Assembly: GCF_000855665.1 (NCBI RefSeq) | Contig: NZ_JXSS01000064.1 | Location: 1 to 61,242 of the forward strand | Origin: Lysobacter sp. A03 | GTDB lineage: Bacteria > Pseudomonadota > Gammaproteobacteria > Xanthomonadales > Xanthomonadaceae | Length of the DNA: 61,242 bases | Direction: 5' to 3' | Part shown: piece by piece, positions 33,894-50,523 of the stretch | Numbering within the stretch: the first letter of the stretch is position 1 | Layout: every line of letters begins with the position of its first letter | Translations under genes and position numbers: made by a program | Notes under the pieces: generated by a model | Database searches by the model: none | What the model saw: the letters and a program-made list of their open reading frames with translations, nothing else | What the model was told of the DNA's origin: nothing

Positions 33894-34802
33894 TTACCCG
33901 GTGCGTTCGTCCGGCGGCAATTTTGCCCCGTCCTGCGCAGCCTTCAGCCGCATCAGGTGGCCGTGGAGCATTTCCGTCGACAGGCCGTGCAGTGACAGAC
34001 GGTAGCCCGCGCGCAGAGTGGACATCGGCACCAGCGGGTGTTTGTTGTTGACCAGTCCGAGGTGGTCGCGGGCGTCGAGGATGGTAGCGACGTAGATGCC
34101 GATGGTTTCATCGAGCTGCAGCGAATTGGTCGCCCGCCAGAAGTCGTCATCGCTCAGGAACAGCTGATAGACCGGGGTGAAAAGCTCGATCGCGCTCTGC
34201 AGGTCGAGGAAGTTCCGGCGCCGGTTGGGCATGTCCTCGATCCGCAGATGGTCCGGCTGGTGCATCATCGAGAAATCCGGCGTTTCGACCTTCCCGAGCT
34301 GCTTGCCGCTGGCGCGCAGCGCGCTGTTGAGCCGGATCACGAAATTGTAGAGGTTGAGGTCGTGGACCAGATACATGTCCGGGGCGACGTCGGCGATTTT
34401 TTCCGGTCGCAAGGGATTGGTCTGGATATCGACCGGTGCATTGGCAGCGATGAAGGACAACGCCTGCGAGCCGATGCAGAAGTGGCGCAGGATCAGCCAG
34501 TTGGCCTCCGGGCGGATGAAGTTCTGCATCCCCCAGGCAAGCAGCCGGTGGAGCGTGGGCGAAAACGCCAGTTTGCGTGGAGTGAACACCTTGAGTATCT
34601 GCAGCAGGATGATCGCCAGCCGCGCAAACGGGCGGATGAAGGGCAGCACGTACTGGCGTGACCTCGAGCTGGAGTCCACCAGCCAGGCGTGTTTCACCGC
34701 CGGATCAATCGGTGTGGACTGGTCCAGGTACAGCGCCAGCCACGGGCTGGGATCGCGCGGGTCATGTTCCTGCTCGAGGAAGTCCGGGGTGCGCTGGGTC
34801 AT
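33894..34802 (-). CDS. Unknown protein, third gene of KAS-diiron operon
   Basis: 302 residues, start ATG 34802 overlapping the TGA of the fused ketosynthase gene (ATGA). It begins MTQRTPDFLEQEHDPRDPSPWLALYLDQS and has one hydrophobic stretch (RPFARLAIILLQILKVF). Polar regions follow with several His/Asp-rich segments (LILRHFCIGSQALSF, MYLVHDLNLYNFVIRLNSAL, FSMMHQPDHLRIEDMPNRR). I recall similar proteins annotated DUF6999, but no function is known. Tight coupling to the hydroxylase and ketosynthase-diiron genes implies a part in the same pathway, perhaps as a membrane-associated partner or tailoring enzyme. Confidence 0.8.
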   Translation of the reverse strand: MTQRTPDFLEQEHDPRDPSPWLALYLDQSTPIDPAVKHAWLVDSSSRSRQYVLPFIRPFARLAIILLQILKVFTPRKLAFSPTLHRLLAWGMQNFIRPEANWLILRHFCIGSQALSFIAANAPVDIQTNPLRPEKIADVAPDMYLVHDLNLYNFVIRLNSALRASGKQLGKVETPDFSMMHQPDHLRIEDMPNRRRNFLDLQSAIELFTPVYQLFLSDDDFWRATNSLQLDETIGIYVATILDARDHLGLVNNKHPLVPMSTLRAGYRLSLHGLSTEMLHGHLMRLKAAQDGAKLPPDERTG

Positions 34803-36712
34803 GCCGGAGTTTCCCGCAGGGGTGTGACGTGCTGGAACTGCATCAGGTACATCTCCGCGGTGCGTTTGGCCGTATCCAGGATATCCATCGCCAGATGTCC
34901 GTGGCTGTCGTGCTCCAGGGCGATTTCCACCGCCCGCAACCAGCGCAGCAAGTGGTGCTCGTCATTCTCGCCGTGGTATTCGAGGAAGCGGAATGCGTCG
35001 CGTGGCACGTCCTTGAGCGCGGCCTTCATCAGCGGGAGCAGGGCGGGAATGATCCGCTGTCCGGTGCCTTCGATGATGTAGATCGCGCCCAGCAGGCCGA
35101 TCGGGTTCTGCGTTGCGGCCAACGCGTGCAGGTACGCGTTCAGTGCCTCCCCGCCCGGGTTGCGCTGCAGACGGTCGATGTCCGCGACCGGGCCGCCGGC
35201 CTTGCCGTAGTCGCTGAACAGGATTTCGAAGTCGTCCTGTTCTTCGCCCGCGTGCGTCTCGATCAGCGCCGCCAGCGGCTCGAAAGGGGAGGTGACGCTG
35301 GCTGCCCCCTCGCGCATCCACAGGCTGCCCTCGCGCACCTGGGGGATCCAGTGGCTCATCCAGCCCAGATAGTCGGCCCGGGTCCAGTCGCCCTCGCGCA
35401 GGCGCCTGACCACGGGCGTGCGCCAGACCCGCGAGCGGTAGTCGTGCCACACACCGGCGAGTTTGCCGAGCAGGTCGCGCAAGGCTTCGGGCGCGTCCGC
35501 CGGGTCGTGGGGCGCGGGAACAGGGGTGTCCAGAGAGGGCGCGGAGGTAGTGGACGTTGCCCGCGCTACCGGAGCAGCCAACGGGCTGTCAGCTGCTTCG
35601 ACCTCGATCAATACGAAGGACGCAGTAAAGCGGCCGGACTCCGGGACAAAACACAGGATCTGCTGGCCAGCCTCGATCTCGCGGGTGCGCAGGAACTCGT
35701 CAAGCATGATGAAGATCGATGCCGCGCCCGTGTTGCCACGCGTTGCCAGGTTGCTGTACCAGCGCTCTCGCGGGATCGCCAGGCCGGCCTTCTGCATCAG
35801 GTCGTCCACCACCGGTGCGAACTTCTCCGATGAGTAGTGACACAGGAAATGGTCGACACGATCAGGGTGGATATCGCCGGCCTGCACAAGGCGGACGTAC
35901 TCGTGGATGCAGACGTCGAACAGGTTCGGCAGCAGCCGGATGTCCTGGCGCAACAGCAGTGCGCCGTCGGCTTCCGCGTCCTGCCAGCGGTCGTAATCGA
36001 GATGGGAGCGCCCCCCTTTGGCCGACAGTCCCAATTGCATGCAGACCGGGTAGTCGCCCGAAAACGAGCGCTGGTGGATGAAGCGCAATTTCAGCCGCAG
36101 CTTCGCATCTTGGCTGGGCCGGGACGACAACAGCACCGCGCCGGCACCGTCGGACAGCATCCAGCGCAGGAAATGGGCATCGAAGTCGGCGTTGTAGCCG
36201 CAGCCGGCAAAACGCGAGCGCTTGAACAACCGCGACGGCATTTCCGCCGCCGCCACCAGTGCATGCTCGTGGGAGCGCAATTCCACCGCACTTGCCGCGG
36301 CCTCCCATGCCGCGATCCCGGATGCGCAGATCCCCAGCGAGCTCAGGGTCTGCATTGGCGGGCCGTTGAGTTCGCCCAGCACCATGTTGGCAAAGCCGGG
36401 CAGCAGTGCGTCGCCGCCGCATCCGCCGGTGGCAAGCATCCCTACGTCGTCCAACAATTGCCCGGCGCTATGCAGGCACTCGCTGATTGCGCTCGCCGCC
36501 ATCGCCTCGGGCGAGGTGTGAGTGGTGCCGTCCTGGTTGATACCGTAGTGGCGGGTGGTGATCCCGTTCTGGTCGAGGATGCGCTGCTTGATGCGCGAGG
36601 ACAGCTGGTTGAGCGGTGCGACAAACGCATCCATGCCAGCGTTGTCGATCGCCGGGCCGGGCAGGTGGCGTGCGTGGCCGGTGATGTACACGTTGTTGAA
36701 GCGGGTGGTCAT
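34799..36712 (-). CDS. KASIII-like ketosynthase fused to heme-oxygenase-like diiron domain
   Basis: 637 residues. Residues 1-375 are a beta-ketoacyl synthase III-like thiolase fold with the triad intact: Cys129 (SLGICASG), His292 (FLCHYSSEKF) and Asn327 (TRGNTGAAS). After a Pro/Ala/Thr linker (376-405), residues 410-630 are a heme-oxygenase/TENA/PqqC-like helical domain. Its putative metal ligands match the heme-oxygenase-like diiron oxidase pattern: Glu485 and His487 (IETHAGEE), Glu548 (YIIEGTG), His580, Asp584 and His586/587 (YHGENDEHH). Separately known relatives make carbon-carbon bonds (KASIII, StlD/DarB) and oxidise fatty acyl or amine groups (UndA-type). The fusion sits between a sterol-desaturase-type hydroxylase and an unknown protein, both overlapping by four bases. 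Product unknown. Confidence 0.88.
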   Translation of the reverse strand: MTTRFNNVYITGHARHLPGPAIDNAGMDAFVAPLNQLSSRIKQRILDQNGITTRHYGINQDGTTHTSPEAMAASAISECLHSAGQLLDDVGMLATGGCGGDALLPGFANMVLGELNGPPMQTLSSLGICASGIAAWEAAASAVELRSHEHALVAAAEMPSRLFKRSRFAGCGYNADFDAHFLRWMLSDGAGAVLLSSRPSQDAKLRLKLRFIHQRSFSGDYPVCMQLGLSAKGGRSHLDYDRWQDAEADGALLLRQDIRLLPNLFDVCIHEYVRLVQAGDIHPDRVDHFLCHYSSEKFAPVVDDLMQKAGLAIPRERWYSNLATRGNTGAASIFIMLDEFLRTREIEAGQQILCFVPESGRFTASFVLIEVEAADSPLAAPVARATSTTSAPSLDTPVPAPHDPADAPEALRDLLGKLAGVWHDYRSRVWRTPVVRRLREGDWTRADYLGWMSHWIPQVREGSLWMREGAASVTSPFEPLAALIETHAGEEQDDFEILFSDYGKAGGPVADIDRLQRNPGGEALNAYLHALAATQNPIGLLGAIYIIEGTGQRIIPALLPLMKAALKDVPRDAFRFLEYHGENDEHHLLRWLRAVEIALEHDSHGHLAMDILDTAKRTAEMYLMQFQHVTPLRETPA

Positions 36713-37512
36713 TCTCGGGAGTCCTTGGCGTGCGACGGGGCGGCCAGATGGTCGGCTGCGCCTGCATCAATAGTGGTTCCTGCCAGACGGTCGAGCACGT
36801 CCAGCAGGAAGCCGTAGTTGCCGTGATAGACGGCGTGATGGAGATGATGGCGTCGGCTGGCAGCGAGCGGCCCCCCAGCGGGCGCGCGGCGGCTGAACTC
36901 GTAGTTCGCGTGACCCAGGTTGTTGAGCACGATGCTCATCACCGGCAGGCAGAACAGCGCGACGGGGCTGAAGTCGTGCACCAGCATGGGCAGGATCGGC
37001 ACGCTGCCCAGCAACAGGGTTTCCACCGGGTGGAAGGCGTAGGTCGAAAACGGGGTCGGCGTCAGCGAGCGGTGGTGATCGGCGTGGAAGCGCCGCAGCG
37101 GCCGCGTGTGCAGCAACCGATGGCAGACATAGAAGTGCAGCTCGTTCCACAGGAACAGGGCCAGAAGCTCGAGCACGATGCGCAGCCCCGACGGCTCATG
37201 GGCCAGCCCGGCCCAGCCGCTGCGCAGCAGCCACCACGGCACCAGGACGCCGACGCCAAACAGCAGGATCGAACTGCAGGATTCAGCGATCTCGCGGCGC
37301 AGCTGCCCCGGCCGAAGAGGCCGCTGATCCAGCACCCTGCCGAAGCCCACGCGTGGCAATGCCGACTGCGTGAGCCACCAGGTCACTGCGCCAGTCACGA
37401 AATACAGCACGGCGAAGTAGAGCGTCGCCCACAGGACCACCTGCCACGGCGGCAGCGCGATGAAGTCGTGTGCGAAGCGGGTAATGCCGGTGAGCTCCAG
37501 ACGTGATCCCAT
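36709..37512 (-). CDS. Sterol desaturase/fatty acid hydroxylase family protein
   Basis: 267 residues from ATG 37512; an extension to 37572 lacks support. An integral membrane diiron hydroxylase is indicated by hydrophobic helices (WQVVLWATLYFAVLYFVTGAVTWWL, ILLFGVGVLVPWWLL, LPVMSIVLNNLGH) and the three histidine clusters: FYVCHRLLH, RRFHADHH and ASRRHHLHHA. It is the first gene of the three-gene overlapping operon (stop overlaps the start of the KAS-diiron gene by ATGA). It probably hydroxylates or desaturates the lipid-like product of the ketosynthase. The substrate is not known. Confidence 0.9.
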   Translation of the reverse strand: MGSRLELTGITRFAHDFIALPPWQVVLWATLYFAVLYFVTGAVTWWLTQSALPRVGFGRVLDQRPLRPGQLRREIAESCSSILLFGVGVLVPWWLLRSGWAGLAHEPSGLRIVLELLALFLWNELHFYVCHRLLHTRPLRRFHADHHRSLTPTPFSTYAFHPVETLLLGSVPILPMLVHDFSPVALFCLPVMSIVLNNLGHANYEFSRRAPAGGPLAASRRHHLHHAVYHGNYGFLLDVLDRLAGTTIDAGAADHLAAPSHAKDSRE

Positions 37513-40305: not shown

Positions 40306-41304
40306 TCAGGGATGGCGCATCTGCAGCGATATCTGTGAGATGCGTTCAACAACGCGGCCCATGGCGGCAGCGGCCTCCTCGAACAGCTCACCGTCGGAGT
40401 TCGCCATGACGGTTTCGAGCATGTCGGCCAGCGACTCGAGCGGCTTTTGCGCATCCACCAGCAGGTGACGCGGATCTTCCGTGCCCGATGAGGTGGCGGT
40501 CGGCCGGGATGCCTCAGCCGGAGACGGCACTGTTCCGGCGGGAATGGCGCGCTCCAGCAATTCCGCACTGGCGTGGTCGCCGGCAGCGCGCAATCGCGGC
40601 ACCAAGGCGCGATGCACGGCAGCGATTTCGGCGTCCTTCTGCGCCAAGGCATCGCGCAGCCCCTCGATGGAATCGATCTCCACCGGCTCACTGCGGGCCG
40701 GGCGTCGCTCGCGATGGTAGGCGCGGCGACGCCATTTGCGAAGCAACGCCGCGTGACGCAGCTCCTCGCCGCCGAGCTTCTCCGCCTCTGCCCTGATTTC
40801 CTCGTTCTCGGCATGCGCGGCGAGGTATGCGTAGAAGGAAAACGCGCGCTCCTCGTTCTCGACCGCCAGGGCGAAGGCCCGATACGGCGTCAGCAGGGCA
40901 CTGCCAGCCACCTTGTCCCAGGAGGTGGAGAGGTCGGCGGGCAATTGCCATTCGAAATCCTCGGCCGATATGTCGGGCTCGCCCACGGAGGCGGCCCAGC
41001 GATCGACGGCCTGGACGTGGCTTTGCTCTTCTTCCAGCATCACCCGGAACGCGGCGGCGGTGGACGTCTCACCACGACTCTCCATCAACTCGGCGAGGAA
41101 GCGGTAGCGCCGGACCGCCTCGTCCTCGATGGCCTTGGCGATGCCCACCAGAGTGGGCATGTCGACCACGTCGATGTCTGGATCATCGCGCAGCAACGAT
41201 CGCCGCCGCGCGTACTCCATCGGGCTGACGCGCCGCTGGCCGGCGGTGTTCTGGGCGAGCGCCAAGGGCTCGCGGGATTCATTGTCGGAAGTGGTTCGAC
41301 GCAT
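40306..41304 (-). CDS. Ferritin-like diiron protein next to nos operon
   Basis: 332 residues. A four-helix ferritin-like core has helix pairs AIEDEAVRRYRFLAELMESRG and FRVMLEEEQSHVQAV, then FALAVENEERAFSFYAYLAAHA and AEKLGGEELRHAALL: two Glu plus two ExxH motifs, as in rubrerythrin-type diiron sites. It lacks the rubredoxin domain. The C-terminal third (LRDALAQKDAEIAAVHRALV... MLETVMANSDGELFEEAAAAM) is helical and unrecognised. The gene is divergent from nosR with a 99-base shared intergenic region. A peroxide- or NO-protective role is conjecture. Confidence 0.83.
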   Translation of the reverse strand: MRRTTSDNESREPLALAQNTAGQRRVSPMEYARRRSLLRDDPDIDVVDMPTLVGIAKAIEDEAVRRYRFLAELMESRGETSTAAAFRVMLEEEQSHVQAVDRWAASVGEPDISAEDFEWQLPADLSTSWDKVAGSALLTPYRAFALAVENEERAFSFYAYLAAHAENEEIRAEAEKLGGEELRHAALLRKWRRRAYHRERRPARSEPVEIDSIEGLRDALAQKDAEIAAVHRALVPRLRAAGDHASAELLERAIPAGTVPSPAEASRPTATSSGTEDPRHLLVDAQKPLESLADMLETVMANSDGELFEEAAAAMGRVVERISQISLQMRHP

Positions 41305-41403
41305 AACGGAAGCCTCGGATATACTCGCCTCGGAAGGGCTGTCGCGAATCGTGGCTGCGGCAGCGTGGCGTCAATCATCCTACAAGCATCCCGGGGTTGG
41401 ATT

Positions 41404-43722
41404 TTGAGAGATCCCACAAGCGTGACATGGCGATTCGTCCTTGCCCTTGTTCTCTTCGCGGCGTTTTCCTGGCTGCCGGCCGGTGCGCAGAACGCAGCGA
41501 CCTTCGACACATTTGCGAATCAGGTGGTTCCCGGTGAAGTTGTTCCCGGTGCCGACCGCTTCGGACCCACCCAGCAGTCCCCACCGGTTGCCCAGGTGTT
41601 CCGCGGCGATGAACTGGTCGGCTATGCGTACCTGAACTCGCAGTACGTAAACGCTGACGGCTACTCAAGCAAGCCGATCCACATCATCGTCGGGCTGGAC
41701 ACGACGGGCACGATCGTGGGCATGAAGATGGTGGCCCACAGCGAGCCGATCGTGCTGATCGGTATTCCCGAGAAACGCGTGGTCGACTACATGGCCGCCT
41801 TCATCGGCTACAACCCGCTGAAGGCAGCGGCCGATGGCAGCGGGCCACCGCGCGTGAACCTGGTCAGCGGTGCAACGGTCACCGCGCTGGTCATGGGCGA
41901 AAGTATTACCCGATCGGCAGTGCGCGTGGCGCGGCTGCTGGGGCTGGGCGGCGCCGGAGCGGCGGGCGGCGACGCGTCGGCGGCGCGCTCGATCGACTCT
42001 GGCGCCGGGGAACTCCAGGGTTGGCAAGACCTGCTGGAGGAGGGCGGCGTCAAGCATCTCCACCTGACCGTGGGTGAGGTCAACCAAAAGTTTCTGGAAA
42101 GCGGCGACCCGGTGGCGGCGAGATTCCCCCAGGCGGGCGCGGACGACGACGCCTTCATCGACCTGTACGTGGCACTGGTATCGCAGCCGGCAATCGGACG
42201 CAGCCTGCTGGGCGATAGCGAGTACGCCAGCATGCAGCAGATGCTGGGGCCCGATCAGCAGGCCATCCTCGTGGGCGGCGACGGGATCTACTCGTTCAAG
42301 GGTTCTGGCTACGTGCGCGGCGGCATCTTCGACCGTATCGAGCTGATCCAGGGCGCGGAGACGATCCGCTTTCGTGACCAGTTCCATCGCCGCGTGGGGG
42401 CGATCGCGGCGGAGGGCGCCCCAGCGCTCAAGGAAATAGGGATCTTCGTCATTCCGGAGGGGAGCGAGTTCGATCCCGCAGCGCCCTGGCGCCTGCAACT
42501 GCTGGTCCAGCGCGCGACCGGCGCGCTGACCAAGGTGTTCGAGTCCTTCGATCTTCCGTACGCGATTCCGGCCCGCTACACCAAGGCGGATTCGCCGGCG
42601 GTCGCAGAGTCTGGACGTGGGCGCGGAGCGGGAGCCGGGGCAGGCCCCGGGCCTGGACCCGGGGCGGGGCATGCGTCAACGGCGGGCCAGGCCGCGGTCG
42701 GAAGGGGCGGCATTGCCGCGGATGCCAACCAGTGGTTCGACGAGGAAGACGAAGGCGACCCGCTGTGGAAGCGGATATGGCAGAGCAAGGTCGTTGCCAT
42801 CGCCATGCTGGGCATCATGCTCGTCGTCCTGACCCTGATCTTCTTTTTCCAGGACGCGTTGGTTAAACACGAGAAGGTGTATGACCGTGTTCGTCTCGCC
42901 TACCTTGCAACCACGCTGTTCTGGTTGGGCTGGGTGGCACAGGCGCAGCTGTCGGTGGTCAACGTCCTGACATTCTTCAGTTCGCTGCGCTCGGGCTTCA
43001 ACTGGTCCTCGTTCCTGATTGATCCGCTGATCTTCATCCTGTGGTGTTCGGTGGCGGTGTCGCTGCTGTTCTGGGGCCGGGGTGCGTTCTGCGGGTGGCT
43101 GTGTCCGTTCGGTGCGCTGCAGGAGCTGAGCAACCGGATCGCGAAGGCTCTCAAGGTGCCGCAACTCAAGATTCCCTGGGCGGTTCACGAGCGCCTGTGG
43201 CCGATCAAATACATCATCTTCCTTGGTCTGTTCGCGGTGTCGCTGGGTTCCCTGGCCTTCGCCGAGCAGCTGGCCGAGGTTGAGCCCTTCAAGACGGCGA
43301 TCGTGCTCCACTTCATGCGTGAGTGGTGGTTCGTCCTGTTTGCCGTGTCGCTGATCGTCGCTGGCCTGTTCGTTGAACGCTTCTTCTGCCGCTACATGTG
43401 TCCGCTGGGCGCCGCGCTGGCGATTCCCGGGCGCATGCGGATGTTCAACTGGCTCAAGCGCTACCGTGAATGCGGCAATCCGTGCATGCGCTGCTTCAAG
43501 GAGTGCCCGGTGGAGGCGATCCATCCGGAAGGGCATATCAACCCGAACGAATGCATCCAGTGTCTGCATTGCCAGGTCCTGTACCACAGCGAGCAGAAGT
43601 GCCCGGTCAAGATCCAACGCAGGCTGAAGCGAGAGAAGCGCGAAGCGTTCGCGCAGCGCATTCCCATTGCGGTCTTGCCCGACAAGGACGGGCCCGCCCC
43701 TCAACCCGATCCCGCGTCCTGA
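41404..43722 (+). CDS. nosR: NosR, flavin/iron-sulfur electron donor and regulator of N2O reductase
   Basis: 772 residues from TTG 41404 (a GTG at 41422 is an alternative; no start is strongly marked). Layout: signal-like helix to about residue 22; periplasmic FMN-binding domain with [18 protein letters not shown], where Thr of SGATVT takes covalent FMN; a Gly/Pro/Arg low-complexity insert (about residues 401-421); several membrane helices ([17 protein letters not shown] onward); NapH-like motifs [14 protein letters not shown] and [15 protein letters not shown]; and C-terminal ferredoxin clusters [21 protein letters not shown] and [19 protein letters not shown]. NosR passes quinol electrons to NosZ. 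First gene of nosRZDFYLX. Confidence 0.95.
42607..42675 (+). repeat. Low-complexity G/C-rich tract inside nosR
   Basis: Encodes [20 protein letters not shown], a simple Gly-Ala/Gly-Pro run between the periplasmic domain and the first membrane helix of the NosR core. In frame, so a flexible linker; replication slippage could change its length. Confidence 0.7.
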
Positions 43723-43777
43723 CCCCGTCGCGGCCACTACCATCCCCTGTATTCCGCTTGAAATGGAGAGAACGAAC

Positions 43778-45769
43778 GTGACTGACGACAAGAACAAACC
43801 GATGGTCGAGGCGACCGAAAAATCGGGCATGCCCGATTCCGGTCGAAGGGCGGTATTGACCGGAGGCGTCATGGCGCTGACAGCCGGCGTTGCTGCAACC
43901 GGCTTCCTCTCCGGCTGTGGTGACAGGACCGCGGCGCCAGCCGCTGGTGGCGCGGTTCCCGCCGGCTCGCCTCCTGCGGGCAAGAACGCAACTTCGGATG
44001 CCTTCGCCAAGACGCACATCGCGCCGGGCGAACTCGACGAGTACTACGGCTTCCTCTCCGGCGGACAGAGCGGTGAGATGCGCATCATGGGCATACCGTC
44101 GATGCGCGTGCTGATGCGCGTTCCGGTGTTCAACCGCTGCAGCGCAACCGGCTGGGGGCAGACCAACGAAAGCCTCAAGATCCTGACCGAGGGGCTCACC
44201 CCGGAGACGAAAAAATACCTGGAAAGCCGCGGCGGCACCTACATCAACGGCGACCTGCACCACCCGCACCTGTCGTTCACCGATGGCGCGCACGACGGCC
44301 GTTACCTGTTCATGAACGACAAGGCCAACACCCGCGTCGCGCGGATCCGCTGCGATGTCATGAAGTGCGACAAGATCATCGAGTTGCCCAACCAGCACAC
44401 CGTGCACGGGCTGCGCCTGCAAAAGTATCCCAAGACCGGCTACGTGTTCTGCAACGGTGAGGACGCGGTGCCGATCCCCAACAACGGCATGAACCTGGAC
44501 GATCCGTCCGAGTACCGCTGCATCTTCACTGCGGTCGATGGCGATACGATGGAGGTGGCCTGGCAGATCATCGTCAGCGGCAACCTGGACAACGTGGACT
44601 GCGACTACCAGGGCCTGTACGCATTCTCCACCTGCTACAACTCCGAGGAGGGCGTGACCCTCGCCGAGATGACCGCAGCGGAGCAGGACTGGGTAACGGT
44701 TTTCGACCTCAAGGCGATCGAGGCAGCAGTCAAGGACGGGAAGGCCGAGATGATCAGCGGCGTACCGGTACTGGACGGCCGCAAGGAAGCCAATTCGCCG
44801 TTTACCCGTTACATCCCGGTCCCGAACAGCCCGCACGGCATCAATACCGCTCCCGACGGTGTCCACGTGGTGGTCAACGGAAAGCTTTCGCCGACCTGCA
44901 CCGTGTTCGACGTGCGCAAGTTCCCGGACGTCTTCTCAGGCAAGATCAAGCCGCGCGACGCCGTTGTCGCCGAACCGGAGCTGGGTCTGGGCCCGCTGCA
45001 CACGGCATTTGATGGCCGTGGCAATGCGTACACCACGCTGTTCATCGACAGCCAGATCGTCAAGTGGGACATCGCCAAGGCGGTTGCCAAGTTCAGTGGC
45101 GAGGATGTCGAGCCGATCATCCAGAAGCTCGACGTGCACTACCAGCCGGGCCACAACCACACCTCGATGGGCGAGAGCAAGGAAGCCGACGGCAAGTGGC
45201 TCATGTCCCTGAACAAGTTCTCCAAGGACCGGTTCCTCAACGTCGGACCGCTGAAGCCCGAGAACGATCAGCTGATCGACATCTCCGGTGACGAGATGAT
45301 CCTGGTCCACGACGGCCCGTCGTTTGCCGAGCCGCACGACCTGGAGATCATCCACCGTTCCAAGATCAACCCGGTCAACGTCTGGGACCGTGGCGACGTG
45401 ACCTGGGAAGACGCGCGCAAGCAGGCCGAGGCCGACGGTGTCGACCTGGACGCAGCCGCCGACGTGATCCGGGACGGCAACAAGGTCCGCGTCTACATGA
45501 CCTCGGTCGCGCCGACCTTCAGCCTCACCGATTTCAAGGTCAAGCGTGGCGATGAAGTGACCGTTTACGTGACCAACAAGGACACGGTCGAGGATCTGAC
45601 CCACGGGTTCACTGTGGTCAACTACGGCGTGGCTATGGAAGTCGCTCCGCAGGCGACCGCCTCGGTCACCTTCACCGCCGACCGTCCTGGCGTCTACTGG
45701 TACTACTGCCAGTGGTTCTGCCATGCCCTGCATATGGAAATGAAGGGGCGGATGCTGGTCGAGGCCTAG
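43778..45769 (+). CDS. nosZ: Nitrous-oxide reductase NosZ
   Basis: 663 residues from GTG 43778, seven bases after GGAGAG; ATG 43763 would overlap that site. The leader has a Tat motif ([10 protein letters not shown]) and an unusual lipobox ending TGFLSGCGD. The beta-propeller carries CuZ ligands in [44 protein letters not shown] and [11 protein letters not shown]. The C-terminal cupredoxin domain carries CuA: DLTHGF and [13 protein letters not shown] (two Cys, Trp, His, Met). It reduces N2O to N2 in the periplasm. Fifty-five bases after nosR and four before nosD. Confidence 0.97.
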
Positions 45770-45773
45770 TCCG

Positions 45774-47114
45774 ATGGAGAGCGGGAGCGGTCCGGTGGGT
45801 TTGTTTGGGCCGCTTCGCCCGGTCGGCTGGTGGCGTGCGGTCGGCGTCAGGGCGGCCGCGCACGTTTTGGCGTGCGTGGTCTTCACTGCCGGCTGGCTGG
45901 TGTCGGCGCCTTTGGCTTCCGCGGCAGAGCTGCAGGTGCAGCCCGGGGCGTCGCTGCAAGCGGTTATCGATGCGGCGACACCGGGCGATACCATTCGTCT
46001 GGCGGCGGGGCGCTACGACGGTCCGCTACTGATCGAACGGAAGCTGGCGCTGCTCGGTGAGCCCGGGGCCGTTCTCACGGGGCCCGGTAAAGGCAGCGTG
46101 GTGACGGTCACGGCGCCGGACGTCCAGATCCGCGGGATTGAGATCACCGGCTCCGGGCTGGACGTGCCCGCCATGGATTCGGCGATCCTCGTACGGGAAT
46201 CCGCGCCGCGCGCGGACATCCGTGACAACCACCTGGTCGACAATCTTTTCGGCGTCTACCTGCACGGGGCTGCTGGCTCGATCGTGGAGGACAACGTCAT
46301 CACCGGGCGCAAAGACCTTCGTCTGGCAGAAGCGGGTAACGGGGTGTCGATATGGAACGCCCCGGATGCCAAGGTGATCGGCAACACCATCAGCCATGGC
46401 CGCGACGGCATTTTCGTCAAGGTCAGCAAACGCAACACGTTTGAAAACAACACGTTTTCGGATCTGCGCTTCGCGATCCACTACATGTACACGCACGACA
46501 GCCGGATCGTGGGCAACCGCTCGCGCGGCAACCACGTGGCGTGGGCGATCATGTACTCCGAGCGCCTGGAGATCCGCAATAACGTCTCCGACAACGACCG
46601 CGACCACGGTCTCATGCTGAATTCAACCAACGCCTCTCAGGTGGTCGGCAACACCGTCCGGGGCGGCGGGGAGAAATGCGTCTTTGTCTACAATGCGAAC
46701 GTCAACCGGATCGTCGAGAACTGGTTCGAAGGCTGTCCCATCGGGATCCATTTCACTGCCGGGTCCGAGGGCAACGTCATGACCGGCAATGCGTTCGTCG
46801 CCAACCGGATGCAGGTTAAATACGTGGGAACGCGTTACGTCGACTGGGCCTCGGAAGGTCGAGGCAACTATTGGAGTGACAATCCGGCCTATGACCTGGA
46901 CGGCGACGGTATCGCCGATCGTCCGTATCGGCCCAACGACGTGATGGACGAGATCCTGTGGACGCTGCCCCAGGCCAAGGTGCTGGTCAGCAGCCCTGCG
47001 GTGCAGATGGTGCGCTGGGCGCAGGCCCGATTTCCGGCGCTTTATCCCGGCGGTGTCGTGGACAGTGCACCGCTGATGCGTCCCCCTCAGATGACCAGGC
47101 CAGACGCGCTGTGA
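45774..47114 (+). CDS. nosD: NosD, periplasmic copper/sulfur maturation factor
   Basis: 446 residues with a signal peptide ending near LASAA. A right-handed parallel beta-helix of carbohydrate-binding/sugar-hydrolase (CASH) repeats is evident from the recurring pattern: DIRDNHLVDNLFGVYLHG, IVEDNVITG, VIGNTISHGRDGIFVK, NTFENNTFSDLRFAIHYMYTHDSRIVGNRSRGN, QVVGNTVRGGG. NosD receives copper and sulfur from the NosFY transporter and NosL to build the CuZ centre. Its stop overlaps the GTG start of nosF (GTGA). Confidence 0.96.
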   Translation: MESGSGPVGLFGPLRPVGWWRAVGVRAAAHVLACVVFTAGWLVSAPLASAAELQVQPGASLQAVIDAATPGDTIRLAAGRYDGPLLIERKLALLGEPGAVLTGPGKGSVVTVTAPDVQIRGIEITGSGLDVPAMDSAILVRESAPRADIRDNHLVDNLFGVYLHGAAGSIVEDNVITGRKDLRLAEAGNGVSIWNAPDAKVIGNTISHGRDGIFVKVSKRNTFENNTFSDLRFAIHYMYTHDSRIVGNRSRGNHVAWAIMYSERLEIRNNVSDNDRDHGLMLNSTNASQVVGNTVRGGGEKCVFVYNANVNRIVENWFEGCPIGIHFTAGSEGNVMTGNAFVANRMQVKYVGTRYVDWASEGRGNYWSDNPAYDLDGDGIADRPYRPNDVMDEILWTLPQAKVLVSSPAVQMVRWAQARFPALYPGGVVDSAPLMRPPQMTRPDAL

Positions 47115-48034
47115 GCGCGATTGCACAGTGGGACGGCGTGACCAAGCGCTATGGCAACGTGGTGGCGGTGCAGGACGTGACCCTGGCCTTGCATCCGGGC
47201 GAGGCGACGGCGCTGGTCGGCCACAACGGCGCGGGCAAGACCACCCTGATCAAGCTGCTGCTCGGGCTTATCCGGCCCGAGGAGGGCGCGGTGCGTGTGT
47301 CGGGTATTGACCCGGCGGGTGCGCACGGAGCGGATGCCCGACGGGCCCTCGGTTTCCTTCCCGAGAACGTGGCCTTCCACGGCGCAATGACCGGCCACGA
47401 ACTGATGTCCTTCTACGCGGGGCTCAAAGGTCACTCCACCAAGCGCAACGGCGAACTGCTGTCGTTGGTCGGGATCGCCGACGCCGCCGGTCGCCGCGTG
47501 TCGACGTATTCCAAAGGCATGCGCCAACGACTTGGTATTGCCCAGGCGTTGATCGGCGAGCCGCGCTTGCTGCTGTTTGACGAGCCGACCAGCGGCCTTG
47601 ACCCCGCGTCCAGGATTGATGTTTTCAACACCATCGACATGCTCCGTGGCAGTGGTGCGACCGTTCTTGTCAGCACCCATGCGCTGGCGGAAGTGGAGAA
47701 TCGCGTGGACCGCGTGGCGGTCATGCACCGCGGCAAGCTGCTGGCGGCGGGGACACTGGAGGATTTGCGCGAAGGCGTGGTGCCCCACGTCGGACTGCGG
47801 GTGCGGTTACGCAACTGCGACACGGAACGCTTGCTCGCTGCGCTTCCACCGGGAATCGAGTGCAAGGAGCGCGCTGACGACCTCCTTACGCTGCGGGTGC
47901 CGGCCGAGGACAAGATGAACGCGTTGCGCGCGCTGGCCGGGATGGGCGATGCAGTGGAAGACATCCAGACCGTGACGCCGGGGCTCGAAGATCTGTATCG
48001 GCGCCTGGTCCAGCAGGAGGCGAGCGCGGCATGA
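47111..48034 (+). CDS. nosF: NosF, ABC transporter ATPase for NosZ maturation
   Basis: 307 residues from GTG 47111, overlapping the nosD stop. Walker A ALVGHNGAGKTTLIK, Q-loop region around GFLPENVAFHGAMTG, signature TYSKGMRQRLGIAQAL, Walker B LLLFDEPTSGLDPASR and H-loop LVSTHALAEVE. The C-terminal domain (GLRVRLRNCDTERLL...) is as in other NosF. It pairs with NosY to drive sulfur/copper delivery to NosD. Ends with the nosY start (ATGA overlap). Confidence 0.96.
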   Translation: MSAIAQWDGVTKRYGNVVAVQDVTLALHPGEATALVGHNGAGKTTLIKLLLGLIRPEEGAVRVSGIDPAGAHGADARRALGFLPENVAFHGAMTGHELMSFYAGLKGHSTKRNGELLSLVGIADAAGRRVSTYSKGMRQRLGIAQALIGEPRLLLFDEPTSGLDPASRIDVFNTIDMLRGSGATVLVSTHALAEVENRVDRVAVMHRGKLLAAGTLEDLREGVVPHVGLRVRLRNCDTERLLAALPPGIECKERADDLLTLRVPAEDKMNALRALAGMGDAVEDIQTVTPGLEDLYRRLVQQEASAA

Positions 48035-48855
48035 ATGTCTTCAAGCTTGCGATGCAGGAAATACGCGCGGGATTCCGCAACCGCTGGGTGGTAGCCACCA
48101 CGCTGCTGCTGGCTGCGCTGGCCCTGTCGCTGGTGCTGCTGGGCAGCGCGCCGACCGGTGTGGTCAAGGCCGACCCCTTGGCGGTGGTGGTGGTCAGCCT
48201 GGCAAGCCTGACAATCTTCCTGGTGCCGCTGATCGCCTTGCTGCTGTCCTTCGACGCGATCGTCGGTGAGCAGGAGCGCGGGACCCTGATGCTGCTGCTC
48301 TCTTATCCTGTTTCGCGCTGGGAGGTGATCCTCGGCAAGGCGCTGGGCCAGATCTGCATCCTCGGCATCGCGACACTGCTCGGCTACGGGGTGGCCGCCG
48401 GTGCGCTTTCCCTGAAGACCGAAATCGGCGCTCCCGCCTGGGGCGCATTCGGAGCCATGGTCCTCACCTCGATCATGCTCGGCGCCGCGTTTGTCTCGAT
48501 GGGTGTCCTGGCGAGTGCGATCGTTCGCGAACGCGCCACCGCCGCCGGGTTGGCGGTGGGGATATGGCTGTTTTTCGTGCTGCTTTATGACACCGCGCTG
48601 CTGGGCATCCTGGTCGCCGACCAGGGTAAACACGTGACCCAAAGCACCCTGGATCTGGTGCTGCTACTCAATCCGGCGGACGTGTACCGGATATTCAACA
48701 TGACCGCGAGCGACAGCGTTGCCATCTACAGTGGCTTGGCCGGTCCAGGAAGTGCGGCCACTCTTTCACCGGCGGTTCTGTTCGCGGTACTGGCGGCGTG
48801 GATTGTCGCGCCGTTGGCGTTGGCCGTGCTGGCGTTCCGGAGGAAATCGGTATGA
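48031..48855 (+). CDS. nosY: NosY, ABC transporter permease
   Basis: 274 residues, six hydrophobic helices: FRNRWVVATTLLLAALALSLVLLG, VVVVSLASLTIFLVPLIALLLSF, ILGKALGQICILGIATLLGYGVAAG, AFGAMVLTSIMLGAAFVSMGVLAS, AGLAVGIWLFFVLLYDTALLGIL and LFAVLAAWIVAPLALAVLAF. The conserved DAIVGEQERGTLMLLLSYPVSRWEVILGK is typical of NosY/ABC-2 permeases. Starts within nosF and overlaps the nosL start (ATGA). Confidence 0.95.
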   Translation: MNVFKLAMQEIRAGFRNRWVVATTLLLAALALSLVLLGSAPTGVVKADPLAVVVVSLASLTIFLVPLIALLLSFDAIVGEQERGTLMLLLSYPVSRWEVILGKALGQICILGIATLLGYGVAAGALSLKTEIGAPAWGAFGAMVLTSIMLGAAFVSMGVLASAIVRERATAAGLAVGIWLFFVLLYDTALLGILVADQGKHVTQSTLDLVLLLNPADVYRIFNMTASDSVAIYSGLAGPGSAATLSPAVLFAVLAAWIVAPLALAVLAFRRKSV

Positions 48856-49481
48856 AGATCGGTCGCGCAACCTGGGCCGGCATTGGCCTGGCGATCCTGA
48901 TGCTGGCAGGGTGTGGGAAGGAGGCGCCGGACGCGCCACCTCCAGCGCCCGCCGAGGTCTCCGATGAGGCGACCGGGCACTACTGCGGCATGCTGCTGGC
49001 CGACCACGAGGGACCGAAAGGCCAGATCCACCTGGCCAGCCGCGAGGGACCGCTCTGGTTCTCCTCGGTGCGCGACACGATCGCGTTCCTGCGGCTGCCC
49101 GAGGAAGCCAAGGATGTCGTTGCGGTGTACGTCAACGACATGGGCAAGGCGCAGCACTGGGCGCAGCCAGAGGCGGGCACCTGGGTGGACGCGCACTCTG
49201 CGTGGTTCGTCATCGACAGTTCCATGCGCGGCGGCATGGGCGCAAATGAAGCGGTCCCATTCGCGACCGAATCGGCGGCCGAAGCCTTTCGTGTCAAGCA
49301 CGGCGGCACCATCGCCCGGCTTGACGATATTCCCGATGCTTACGTCCTGGGGCCGGTGGATCTGTCGTCCCCGATGCCCGGCATGGGCGCGGCAGACGCC
49401 GACCCGGCCGATGCGGATCGGCCAGCCGACGGCGACGACGCTGCGGAAGCTCACGGGCACGTCCAGCATCCTGACCACTGA
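48852..49481 (+). CDS. nosL: NosL, copper chaperone lipoprotein
   Basis: 209 residues. Lipoprotein leader MKIGRATWAGIGLAILMLAGC. The copper-binding GHYCGMLLADHEGPKGQIHL holds the conserved Cys-Gly-Met of NosL, followed by WFVIDSSMRGGMGANEAVPFATESAAEAF. It hands Cu(I) to the NosDFY complex. An acidic His-containing tail (ADADPADADRPADGDDAAEAHGHVQHPDH) is longer than usual. ATG overlaps the nosY stop. Confidence 0.95.
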   Translation: MKIGRATWAGIGLAILMLAGCGKEAPDAPPPAPAEVSDEATGHYCGMLLADHEGPKGQIHLASREGPLWFSSVRDTIAFLRLPEEAKDVVAVYVNDMGKAQHWAQPEAGTWVDAHSAWFVIDSSMRGGMGANEAVPFATESAAEAFRVKHGGTIARLDDIPDAYVLGPVDLSSPMPGMGAADADPADADRPADGDDAAEAHGHVQHPDH

Positions 49482-49491
49482 GGACTCCATC

Positions 49492-50523
49492 ATGGTGAAT
49501 CGCCGACGTTTTCTTTCGATCGCCGCCTCGTGTGCGGTCATGGGCTCCATGCCTGTGCGGCTGGCACTCGCCGCGACGCCCTCATCGCCGGTACCAGTCG
49601 TCTGGAAAGGCTCCGCGATGGGCGCGCTGGCGTCGATGACGCTGGTCCATCCCGACCGCCCGTACGCCCAGGCAATGATCGCGCGCTGCGTGGCCGAGAT
49701 TGACCGGCTCGAATCAGTTTTCAGCCTCTATCGACCCGATTCCGCCCTGTCACGCCTCAATGCGACGGGCGTGCTCGCGGAGCCGCCATCCGAACTGGTC
49801 GAGCTTCTCTCCTTCAGCCTGTCTCTGGCGCAGGCGAGCAAGGGCGCGTTCGACCCGACCGTCCAACCGCTGCTCAGCCTCTATTTCCAACACTTCGCAA
49901 AGCCGGGCGCCTCGCCTGCCGGGCCAGGGGCGAGCGCGATTGCACAGGCGCGCCAGCGCATCGGTTTCGCGGACGTCGAGGTGGACACGCACCGGATCCG
50001 TCTCGGCCGGCCGGACGCCGCCATTACCCTCAACGGCGTGGCGCAGGGTTTTGTCACCGACCGGGTTGCAGACCTGTTGCACGCCGGTGGCTTCAGCAAC
50101 GTGTTGATCGACCTCGGCGAAGGGCGCGCGCTGGGACGGGGCCCGGATGGAAAGCCGTGGCGGGCCGCGGTTGCCGACCCGACCAAGCCGGACCACACCT
50201 TATTCGAACTGTCGCTGGGCAGCGATCAGGGACAAAGCCCGGCGTTGGCGACGTCCGGAGGATACGGCACGCGCTTCGGCAGCGATCCGCTGGTCCATCA
50301 CCTCATGGATCCGCACAGCGGTCGCAGCGCCAACCATTACGGGTCGGTTTCGGTGGCCGCACCGCGCGCCACGCTGGCCGACGGGCTGTCCACGACGCTG
50401 TCCATCGTGCAGCCGGCAAGCCGCGCGCCGCTGCTCGCCGACTACCCGCTGGCGCGCGCGTGGTTCGTCGACAGGACTGGCCGCGTGACGGGGCCTGACG
50501 GCGAGCGGGTGATTCAGGCCTAG
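49492..50523 (+). CDS. nosX: NosX, ApbE-type FAD:protein FMN transferase
   Basis: 343 residues; GAGGA precedes ATG 49492. The leader MVNRRRFLSIAASCAV is a Tat signal (RRRFLS). ApbE features: WKGSAMGALASMTLVHP, FSLYRPDSALSRLNATG, ASKGAFDPTVQPL, ITLNGVAQGFVTDRVADLLHAGGFSNVLIDLGEGRALG and ALATSGGYGTRF. It attaches FMN covalently to Thr of the NosR SGATVT motif in the periplasm. Last gene of the nos operon; a hairpin follows at 50550-50567. Confidence 0.95.
   Translation: MVNRRRFLSIAASCAVMGSMPVRLALAATPSSPVPVVWKGSAMGALASMTLVHPDRPYAQAMIARCVAEIDRLESVFSLYRPDSALSRLNATGVLAEPPSELVELLSFSLSLAQASKGAFDPTVQPLLSLYFQHFAKPGASPAGPGASAIAQARQRIGFADVEVDTHRIRLGRPDAAITLNGVAQGFVTDRVADLLHAGGFSNVLIDLGEGRALGRGPDGKPWRAAVADPTKPDHTLFELSLGSDQGQSPALATSGGYGTRFGSDPLVHHLMDPHSGRSANHYGSVSVAAPRATLADGLSTTLSIVQPASRAPLLADYPLARAWFVDRTGRVTGPDGERVIQA

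What the first reader, a model, noticed from the sequence alone, without database searches (positions are those of the whole stretch)
33894..37512. Coupled operon: hydroxylase, KASIII fused to a heme-oxygenase-like diiron domain, and an unknown protein
Three minus-strand genes overlap by ATGA at both junctions. The central gene fuses a complete KASIII-like domain (Cys129, His292, Asn327) to a helical domain with a diiron-oxidase ligand pattern (Glu485, His487, Glu548, His580, Asp584, His586/587). KASIII enzymes form carbon-carbon bonds; heme-oxygenase-like diiron oxidases (UndA type) cut or oxidise acyl or amine groups; the sterol-desaturase-type partner is a membrane diiron hydroxylase. A chain-extension product that is then oxidised twice (possibly an alkene, hydroxyketone or modified membrane lipid) is a coherent but untested hypothesis. 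I know of no described pathway with this fusion.
Basis: partly seen in the sequence, partly recalled or inferred. Interest (0 to 1): 0.8.

Follow-up and report, generated by a model that had tools for sequence, protein, structure and literature searches.

The report
Ring-forming ketosynthase fused to iron oxidase
A bacterial gene set, for which I found no description, joins a relative of the enzymes that weld two fatty-acid pieces into a six-carbon ring to a putative iron-dependent oxidase, apparently in place of the partner enzyme used by those relatives, so it may make ring-headed lipids or signals by a new oxidation step.

Summary
The operon is real: three overlapping minus-strand genes at 33894-37512, the middle one a true two-domain fusion. 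Its ketosynthase (KS) half belongs to a sister clade of the StlD/DarB ring-forming ketosynthases (2,5-dialkylcyclohexane-1,3-diones, dialkylresorcinols). Its other half is a Pfam Haem_oxygenas_2 (HDO) domain. The third gene is Pfam DUF6999, function unknown. KS, HDO and DUF6999 form a conserved core: separate genes in a second class (probably Alphaproteobacteria) and Pseudoalteromonas; fused, apparently once, in Lysobacteraceae and Betaproteobacteria, where most loci add a fatty-acid hydroxylase and usually a desaturase, which the window lineage lacks. Of 12 DarB-like KS loci, 11 have a DarA-like neighbour; the twelfth has HDO and DUF6999. DarA-like genes were found in 0 of 14 HDO-type genomes against 4 of 4 DarB-type ones (one is the query's own). 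I infer that HDO (with DUF6999) replaces DarA: UndA-like oxidative decarboxylation of a 4-carboxycyclohexane-1,3-dione would give a dialkylresorcinol. No product is shown. My searches of the held library found no paper on the fusion.

The parts
36709..37512 (-). membrane fatty-acid hydroxylase (sterol-desaturase superfamily), 267 aa; His boxes HRLLH, HADHH, HHLHH read by eye
   Evidence: Pfam FA_hydroxylase 7.6e-24, 85.1 bits against a cut-off of 31; OlsE equivalog not met, 23.7 against 475; detected upstream of KS-HDO in 73 of 80 named loci
36709..36712 (-). ATGA stop/start overlap, hydroxylase to KS-HDO
   Evidence: sequence
34799..36712 (-). KS-HDO fusion protein, 637 aa
   Evidence: single ORF; the 16 fused sequences sampled form one group, 100/100 support
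35600..36712 (-). ketosynthase domain, residues 1-371; Cys129, His292, Asn327
   Evidence: StlD/DarB subfamily profile 4e-89, 299 bits, below cut-off 450; StlD 5gk0 best in sequence and fold
35501..35599 (-). linker, residues 372-404, rich in Pro and Ala by eye
   Evidence: pLDDT under 50 at residues 381-398; variable in the alignment
34823..35500 (-). HDO domain, residues 405-630; invariant H487, E491, D494, E548, H580, D584, H587
   Evidence: Pfam Haem_oxygenas_2 5.4e-07; profile hit to the heme-oxygenase-like fold 3dde, 3.7e-12; conservation
34799..34802 (-). ATGA stop/start overlap, KS-HDO to DUF6999
   Evidence: sequence
33894..34802 (-). DUF6999 protein, 302 aa, helical in the model; among 15 invariant residues are D27, R49, R106, H107, N121, H147, D148, D200, N226, D231, H272
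   Evidence: Pfam DUF6999 1.9e-125; 14-sequence alignment; model pLDDT 78.1; no significant fold match

Best explanation
A biosynthetic module. Step 1 (inferred from kinship and shared residues): the KS domain joins two fatty-acid-derived thioesters by Claisen and Michael steps into a 4-carboxy-2,5-dialkylcyclohexane-1,3-dione, as DarB does. Step 2 (inferred from the fusion, the conserved ligand-like residues and the absence of DarA): the attached HDO domain activates O2, removes the hydrogen at C5 (the beta-carbon of the carboxylate) and drives loss of CO2, as UndA does with fatty acids; the enedione tautomerises to a 2,5-dialkylresorcinol or is oxidised further. It thus does the job of the DarA aromatase. 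Step 3 (role unknown): DUF6999 is a constant partner, perhaps a further enzyme acting on the ring product. The hydroxylase, and in most relatives the desaturase, would modify the alkyl chains or their precursors. Shown: the gene set, its conservation, a single fused group, the DarA/HDO alternation in the loci examined. Not shown: any product or activity.
For: KS nearest to StlD/DarB by profile, PDB sequence and fold. 38 positions are at least 95% fixed in both the 24 HDO-type and the 11 DarB-type KS sequences with the same residue, and none is fixed with different residues. The 24 HDO-type KSs sampled fall in one group (98/99) with one other sequence inside it, and the 16 fused ones form one group (100/100). 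Of the 12 higher-scoring DarB-profile loci, 11 have a DarA-like gene beside the KS and no HDO or DUF6999; the twelfth has HDO and DUF6999, no DarA-like gene, and falls in the HDO group; none of the 12 HDO-type loci compared has a DarA-like gene. DarA-like genes in 4 of 4 DarB-type genomes (one of them the source of the query, so 3 independent) and 0 of 14 HDO-type genomes. Core kept together: of 80 DUF6999 loci, 77 hold KS and HDO (66 all five parts, 7 without detected desaturase, 2 without hydroxylase, 2 without either); 1 short contig holds HDO and DUF6999 only; in 2 Variovorax the locus holds hydroxylase and DUF6999, and desaturase plus KS-HDO lie elsewhere in the same genomes. Literature: DarB makes 4-carboxy-2,5-dialkylcyclohexane-1,3-diones (PMC5515871, passage, citing Fuchs 2013); darB with darA expressed together gave a dialkylresorcinol (PMC3992019, passage); DarA is listed as DAR-aromatase (PMC3949708, Table 1 passage); UndA turns fatty acids into 1-alkenes and CO2 (PMC13108848, passage).
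Against: Window KS identity to DarB-type sequences is only 30-37%, and the curated StlD/DarB (299 of 450 bits) and DarB (241 of 550) cut-offs are not met. One Streptomyces plasmid KS with a DarA-like neighbour sits inside the HDO group (L145), so the partner swap is not perfectly clean. Two Bacteroidota KS loci have neither partner. 'DarA-like' rests on position and mutual similarity; Pfam and NCBIfam give no match for the ones tested, and none of the 12 DarB-like loci reaches the curated DarB cut-off either. The HDO ligand pattern is not the canonical E-H-X-H-D-H, so UndA-type chemistry cannot be assumed, and the HDO fold was not confirmed by structure search (one search lists only ketosynthases in its 50 rows). 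The role of DUF6999 is unexplained. I did not search for an ACP gene.
Confidence: 0.42

Rival explanations
1. KS makes the cyclohexanedione, but the HDO oxygenates the ring or a side chain rather than aromatising it, giving a hydroxylated cyclohexanedione, hydroxyquinol or quinone-like lipid; decarboxylation is spontaneous.
For: Non-canonical first-helix residues (invariant H487, E491, D494) allow other chemistry; HDOs do N-oxygenation, rearrangement and C-C cleavage (PMC13108848, passages).
Against: No DarA-like gene in any of the 14 HDO-type genomes tested, which fits replacement of that step.
Confidence: 0.22
2. The KS does a single condensation (beta-keto acid, pyrone or ketone) and the HDO cuts or desaturates that chain; the hydroxylase then acts on the chain.
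For: OleA, PqsD, AbyA1 and FabH folds also match, more weakly.
Against: StlD is clearly first by sequence and fold; no position is fixed differently between this KS group and the 11 DarB-type KSs.
Confidence: 0.18
3. The HDO domain is not a two-metal O2-activating oxidase but binds one metal or none and acts as a mononuclear oxygenase, cyclase, lyase or scaffold.
For: FlcD is an HDO with a single iron, and about 9% of HDO groups had no strong motif prediction (PMC11363339, passages and section 10); the canonical His of the first ligand helix aligns with Asp494 here.
Against: H580, D584, H587, E548, E491, D494 and H487 are the same in 24 of 24 and 17 of 17 sequences.
Confidence: 0.13

Closest known systems
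DarA/DarB dialkylresorcinol pathway (and StlD of isopropylstilbene synthesis)
   Same: Ketosynthase of the same larger family, with the same catalytic triad and no position fixed differently; two-component layout of KS plus a second protein.
   Different: Curated DarB/StlD cut-offs not met; partner is an HDO (fused here) plus DUF6999 instead of DarA; hydroxylase and in most relatives a desaturase added.
UndA and other heme-oxygenase-like dimetal oxidases (HDO, PF14518)
   Same: Pfam cut-off met; second-helix Glu and third-helix HxxxDxxH pattern present and invariant.
   Different: The usual first-helix E-H pair aligns with E-D here, with an extra invariant His one turn earlier; fused to a ketosynthase; substrate probably the KS product.
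OlsE and other FA_hydroxylase-superfamily enzymes
   Same: Pfam domain and three His boxes (boxes by eye).
   Different: OlsE equivalog score 23.7 against 475 required; operon partner of KS-HDO.
DUF6999 (PF22523)
   Same: Full-length match, 417.9 bits.
   Different: No function known; here tied to KS and HDO.

Membership tests
DarB / StlD-DarB ketosynthase (NF053539, NF005293) | score above the curated cut-off | tested here: not met
   241.2 against 550 and 299.3 against 450 bits
DarB / StlD-DarB ketosynthase (NF053539, NF005293) | Cys-His-Asn triad and residues fixed in DarB-type sequences | tested here: met
   triad present; 38 positions fixed alike and 0 fixed differently between 24 HDO-type and 11 DarB-type KSs at the 95% level
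DarA/DarB pathway | DarA partner | tested here: not met
   no DarA-like gene in the window genome; 0 of 14 HDO-type genomes, 4 of 4 DarB-type genomes, one of these the source of the query
DarA/DarB pathway | cyclohexanedione or resorcinol product | not testable with these tools
   needs expression and mass spectrometry
HDO superfamily | Pfam Haem_oxygenas_2 gathering score | tested here: met
   30 against 28.9 bits; L105 36.5 and L142 37.7; the Pseudoalteromonas protein in L109 gave no such hit
HDO superfamily | canonical E-H-X-H-D-H ligand motif | tested here: not met
   H-D-H and the second-helix Glu present; the canonical first-helix His aligns with invariant Asp494, extra invariant His487 (motif from PMC11363339 section 10)
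HDO superfamily | bound dimetal site, ligands converging in space | not testable with these tools
   no model coordinates; pdb_via library absent
FA_hydroxylase superfamily | Pfam score and His boxes | tested here: met
   85.1 against 31 bits; boxes read by eye
DUF6999 | Pfam score | tested here: met
   417.9 against 27 bits

The most novel reading that the evidence does not exclude
A new enzymatic route to aromatic or cyclohexanedione lipids: a ring-forming ketosynthase covalently joined to an O2-using HDO domain with an unusual metal site (H-E-D / E / H-D-H) that replaces the DarA aromatase by UndA-like oxidative decarboxylation, with DUF6999 as a previously unassigned third enzyme, spread through several families of Pseudomonadota.
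Probability: 0.33. Interest if true: 0.8.

Novelty: new variant of a known kind. Interest (0 to 1): 0.62.

Why it matters
Dialkylresorcinols are parts of pigments (PMC3949708, passages) and biocontrol compounds (PMC6403133, abstract start in the listing); that dialkylresorcinols and cyclohexanediones also serve as bacterial signals is recalled. If this gene set makes them (or oxidised relatives) without DarA, it adds a new metalloenzyme step and a large uncharacterised producer group: one scan of a collection with one genome per species found 510 stretches encoding DUF6999 relatives. It also gives DUF6999, a family with no known role, a testable pathway, and offers an HDO whose ligand-like residues depart from the known motif.

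Tried and rejected
DUF6999 as a hidden second HDO: UndA and PolF chains appeared among Foldseek hits, but at E 2.7 or worse with TM-scores of 0.12-0.16, and profile comparison with the HDO alignment gave a probability of 0.4%: rejected. PDB search with the DUF6999 profile gave one hit, E 0.5. OlsE-type ornithine-lipid hydroxylation: score far below cut-off. Defence system: no PADLOC match at E<=0.01 for the three proteins. A relocated desaturase in the window genome: not found, 0 of 8 genomes (that search had no positive control in it). Desaturase as a core part: rejected, its presence needs 4 changes on the tree of 21 KS-HDO proteins, at least 3 forced by well-supported branches. The count of stop/start overlaps at the KS-HDO/DUF6999 junction in relatives failed (79 of 80 unresolved) and is not used. 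The Foldseek list for the fusion model shows only ketosynthases in the 50 rows printed. The second KASIII-like locus of the window genome (L150) was offered to the KS tree but gave no usable match, so only one FabH, with a very long branch, served as outgroup.
Full report
What is there. Searches show three minus-strand genes with ATGA overlaps at both junctions: 36709-37512 (267 aa), 34799-36712 (637 aa) and 33894-34802 (302 aa). Pfam gives FA_hydroxylase (7.6e-24), ACP_syn_III_C plus Haem_oxygenas_2 (4.3e-10 and 5.4e-07), and DUF6999 (1.9e-125). A search of the window genome with the fusion gave only the fusion itself at E<=0.001. The nearest named relative is Lysobacter antarcticus (L019, 97% identity in DUF6999; 96% in the fusion).

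The ketosynthase. NCBIfam ranks the StlD/DarB subfamily first (4e-89) but below its curated cut-off (299 of 450 bits; DarB 241 of 550). In the PDB, StlD is first by single sequence (2e-57), by profile (5.5e-86) and by Foldseek (2.3e-27; the best non-StlD hit is 1e-17). Among 229 genomes of the class 15 had a DarB-profile match at E<=1e-40, none over the curated cut-off, in two score groups: 12 at 387-533 bits and 3 at 242-255 bits; the three are fused proteins (window, L009, L143). A tree of 39 ketosynthases sampled from my loci puts the 24 HDO-associated sequences plus one Streptomyces sequence (L145) in one group (98/99 support) and the 16 fused ones in one group (100/100), nested among unfused relatives (outgroup one distant FabH). 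At the 95% level 38 positions are fixed alike in the 24 HDO-type and 11 DarB-type sequences, Cys129, His292 and Asn327 among them, and none is fixed differently. Window-to-DarB-type identity is 30-37%.

The partner swap. I fetched the surroundings of the 12 higher-scoring KS loci and one fused locus. In 11 of the 12 (L131-L141) a DarA-like gene lies beside the KS (in L138 on the other strand) and no HDO or DUF6999 was detected at E<=1e-4. The twelfth (L142, 387 bits) has KS, HDO and a distant DUF6999 and no DarA-like gene, and its KS falls in the HDO group. The 12 HDO-type loci in that comparison (L142, L143, L109, L010, L104-L108, L007-L009) showed no DarA-like gene. Against a clean split: one Streptomyces plasmid KS inside the HDO group has a DarA-like neighbour (L145), and two Bacteroidota plasmid KSs have neither partner (L144, L146). 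At genome level, with a DarA-like query from one DarB-type genome, matches at E<=1e-8 came in 4 of 4 DarB-type genomes tested (the query's own included; the match in G023 holds a TGA) and 0 of 14 HDO-type genomes; the other DarB-type genomes were not put in. The label DarA-like rests on its position beside DarB, as in the published clusters (PMC3949708 and PMC3992019, passages), and on mutual similarity; Pfam and NCBIfam gave no match.

The conserved core and its additions. DUF6999 occurs in 5 of 299 genomes of the phylum and 6 of 289 of the class of G223, ten genomes in all since G223 is in both. In all ten KS and HDO lie beside it. The nine fusion genomes found among 299 of the order all carry DUF6999 next to the fusion (eight relatives, and the window). 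Of the 80 best named DUF6999 loci kept from 510 confirmed stretches, 66 have hydroxylase, desaturase, KS, HDO and DUF6999 in that order; in 7 the desaturase was not detected, in 2 the hydroxylase, in 2 neither (two contigs of 3 and 11 kb); 1 short contig has HDO and DUF6999; 2 Variovorax loci have hydroxylase and DUF6999 only. In the last two genomes the KS-HDO is elsewhere with the desaturase beside it, so the set is kept although the operon is split. KS and HDO share one open frame in 75 of the 77 loci that hold both, and in two (L030, L036) the frame is the same but a stop lies within the matched stretch, not resolved. In six loci of the second class (L010, L104-L108), in L142 and in Pseudoalteromonas sp. 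THAF3 (L109) KS, HDO and DUF6999 are separate genes, and no hydroxylase or desaturase was detected with my queries; nor was one at the fused locus L143. The desaturase is not found in the window genome or in seven relatives that lack it at the locus (0 of 8, no positive control in that search), and its presence changed several times within Lysobacteraceae.

The HDO site. H487, E491, D494, E548, H580, D584 and H587 are the same in 24 of 24 sequences (A4) and in a set of 17 that adds L142, L143 and L109; Q458 and E522 are also invariant in the 17. Residue 485 is E in 7 of 24 and residue 586 is H in 11 of 24. The last three match the HxxxDxxH of the third ligand helix and E548 the second-helix ligand. 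Alignment with two other HDOs from plasmids (L147, L148) shows that their first-helix ExxH corresponds to E491/D494 here, with the extra H487 one turn earlier. A survey of HDO groups reports E-H-X-H-D-H or E-H-X-H-E-H in about 85% of 150 groups (PMC11363339, section 10 read), so this family departs from the usual motif. The domain profile matches the heme-oxygenase-like protein 3dde (3.7e-12). The AlphaFold model has mean pLDDT 78.9, pTM 0.56 and a low-confidence linker at 381-398; ligand distances could not be measured.

DUF6999. Its model is all-helical (pLDDT 78.1) without a significant fold match. Fifteen residues are invariant in 14 diverse sequences, including R106-H107, H147-D148, D200, N226, D231 and H272, which looks like an active site, but of what kind I cannot say. 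The library holds no paper with the term DUF6999.

Mechanism. DarB makes 4-carboxy-2,5-dialkylcyclohexane-1,3-diones (PMC5515871, passage, citing Fuchs 2013), darB and darA together give a dialkylresorcinol (PMC3992019, passage), and DarA is listed as the DAR-aromatase (PMC3949708, Table 1 passage). In such a ring acid the carbon beta to the carboxylate that bears the alkyl group is C5. [quoted passage not shown] that it starts at the beta-hydrogen is recalled). The same reaction on the ring acid would give an enedione that tautomerises to a resorcinol. This is why I propose that HDO replaces DarA. It is an inference; the rivals are ring or chain oxygenation, a single-condensation KS, and a one-metal or non-oxidase role.

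Literature. Full-text searches for the combination and for DUF6999 in the held open-licence library returned no title or abstract describing this fusion or gene set; I saw listings (25 of 47 papers, 25 of 33) and passages of the papers named here. The primary DarB and StlD papers were not read. Of the papers I opened, PMC13232832 and PMC12614342 were seen as passages only and not used.

Noticed in passing
L147 (2959-3624) and L148 (2965-3654): Another HDO operon, on plasmids of Citrobacter freundii and Variovorax paradoxus: 'thermostable hemolysin' - AMP-binding protein - iron-containing redox enzyme - SDR oxidoreductase, with no ketosynthase in the stretch shown.
   Followed up: no
L037, L040 with L113, L114: In two Variovorax genomes the set is split into hydroxylase + DUF6999 at one place and desaturase + KS-HDO at another.
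   Followed up: partly
L144, L146: StlD/DarB-like ketosynthase genes on Bacteroidota plasmids directly after a TetR/AcrR or helix-turn-helix regulator gene, with neither DarA-like nor HDO partner detected.
   Followed up: no
L145 4703-11092: Streptomyces plasmid cluster: ACP, KS of the HDO group, DarA-like protein, FAD-dependent monooxygenase, SCP2-like protein, FabF, P450; it breaks the clean KS/partner split in the tree.
   Followed up: partly
L109 5621-6178 and 8825-10729: Two hypothetical genes on the same strand flank the KS-HDO-DUF6999 trio on the Pseudoalteromonas THAF3 plasmid: one of 185 aa without Pfam match and one of 634 aa with only weak matches.
   Followed up: partly
window 40573-50523: By eye (recalled families, no profile run): a nitrous-oxide reductase (nos) gene cluster with NosR-like, NosZ, NosD, ABC and ApbE-like genes near the operon (ORFs).
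   Followed up: no
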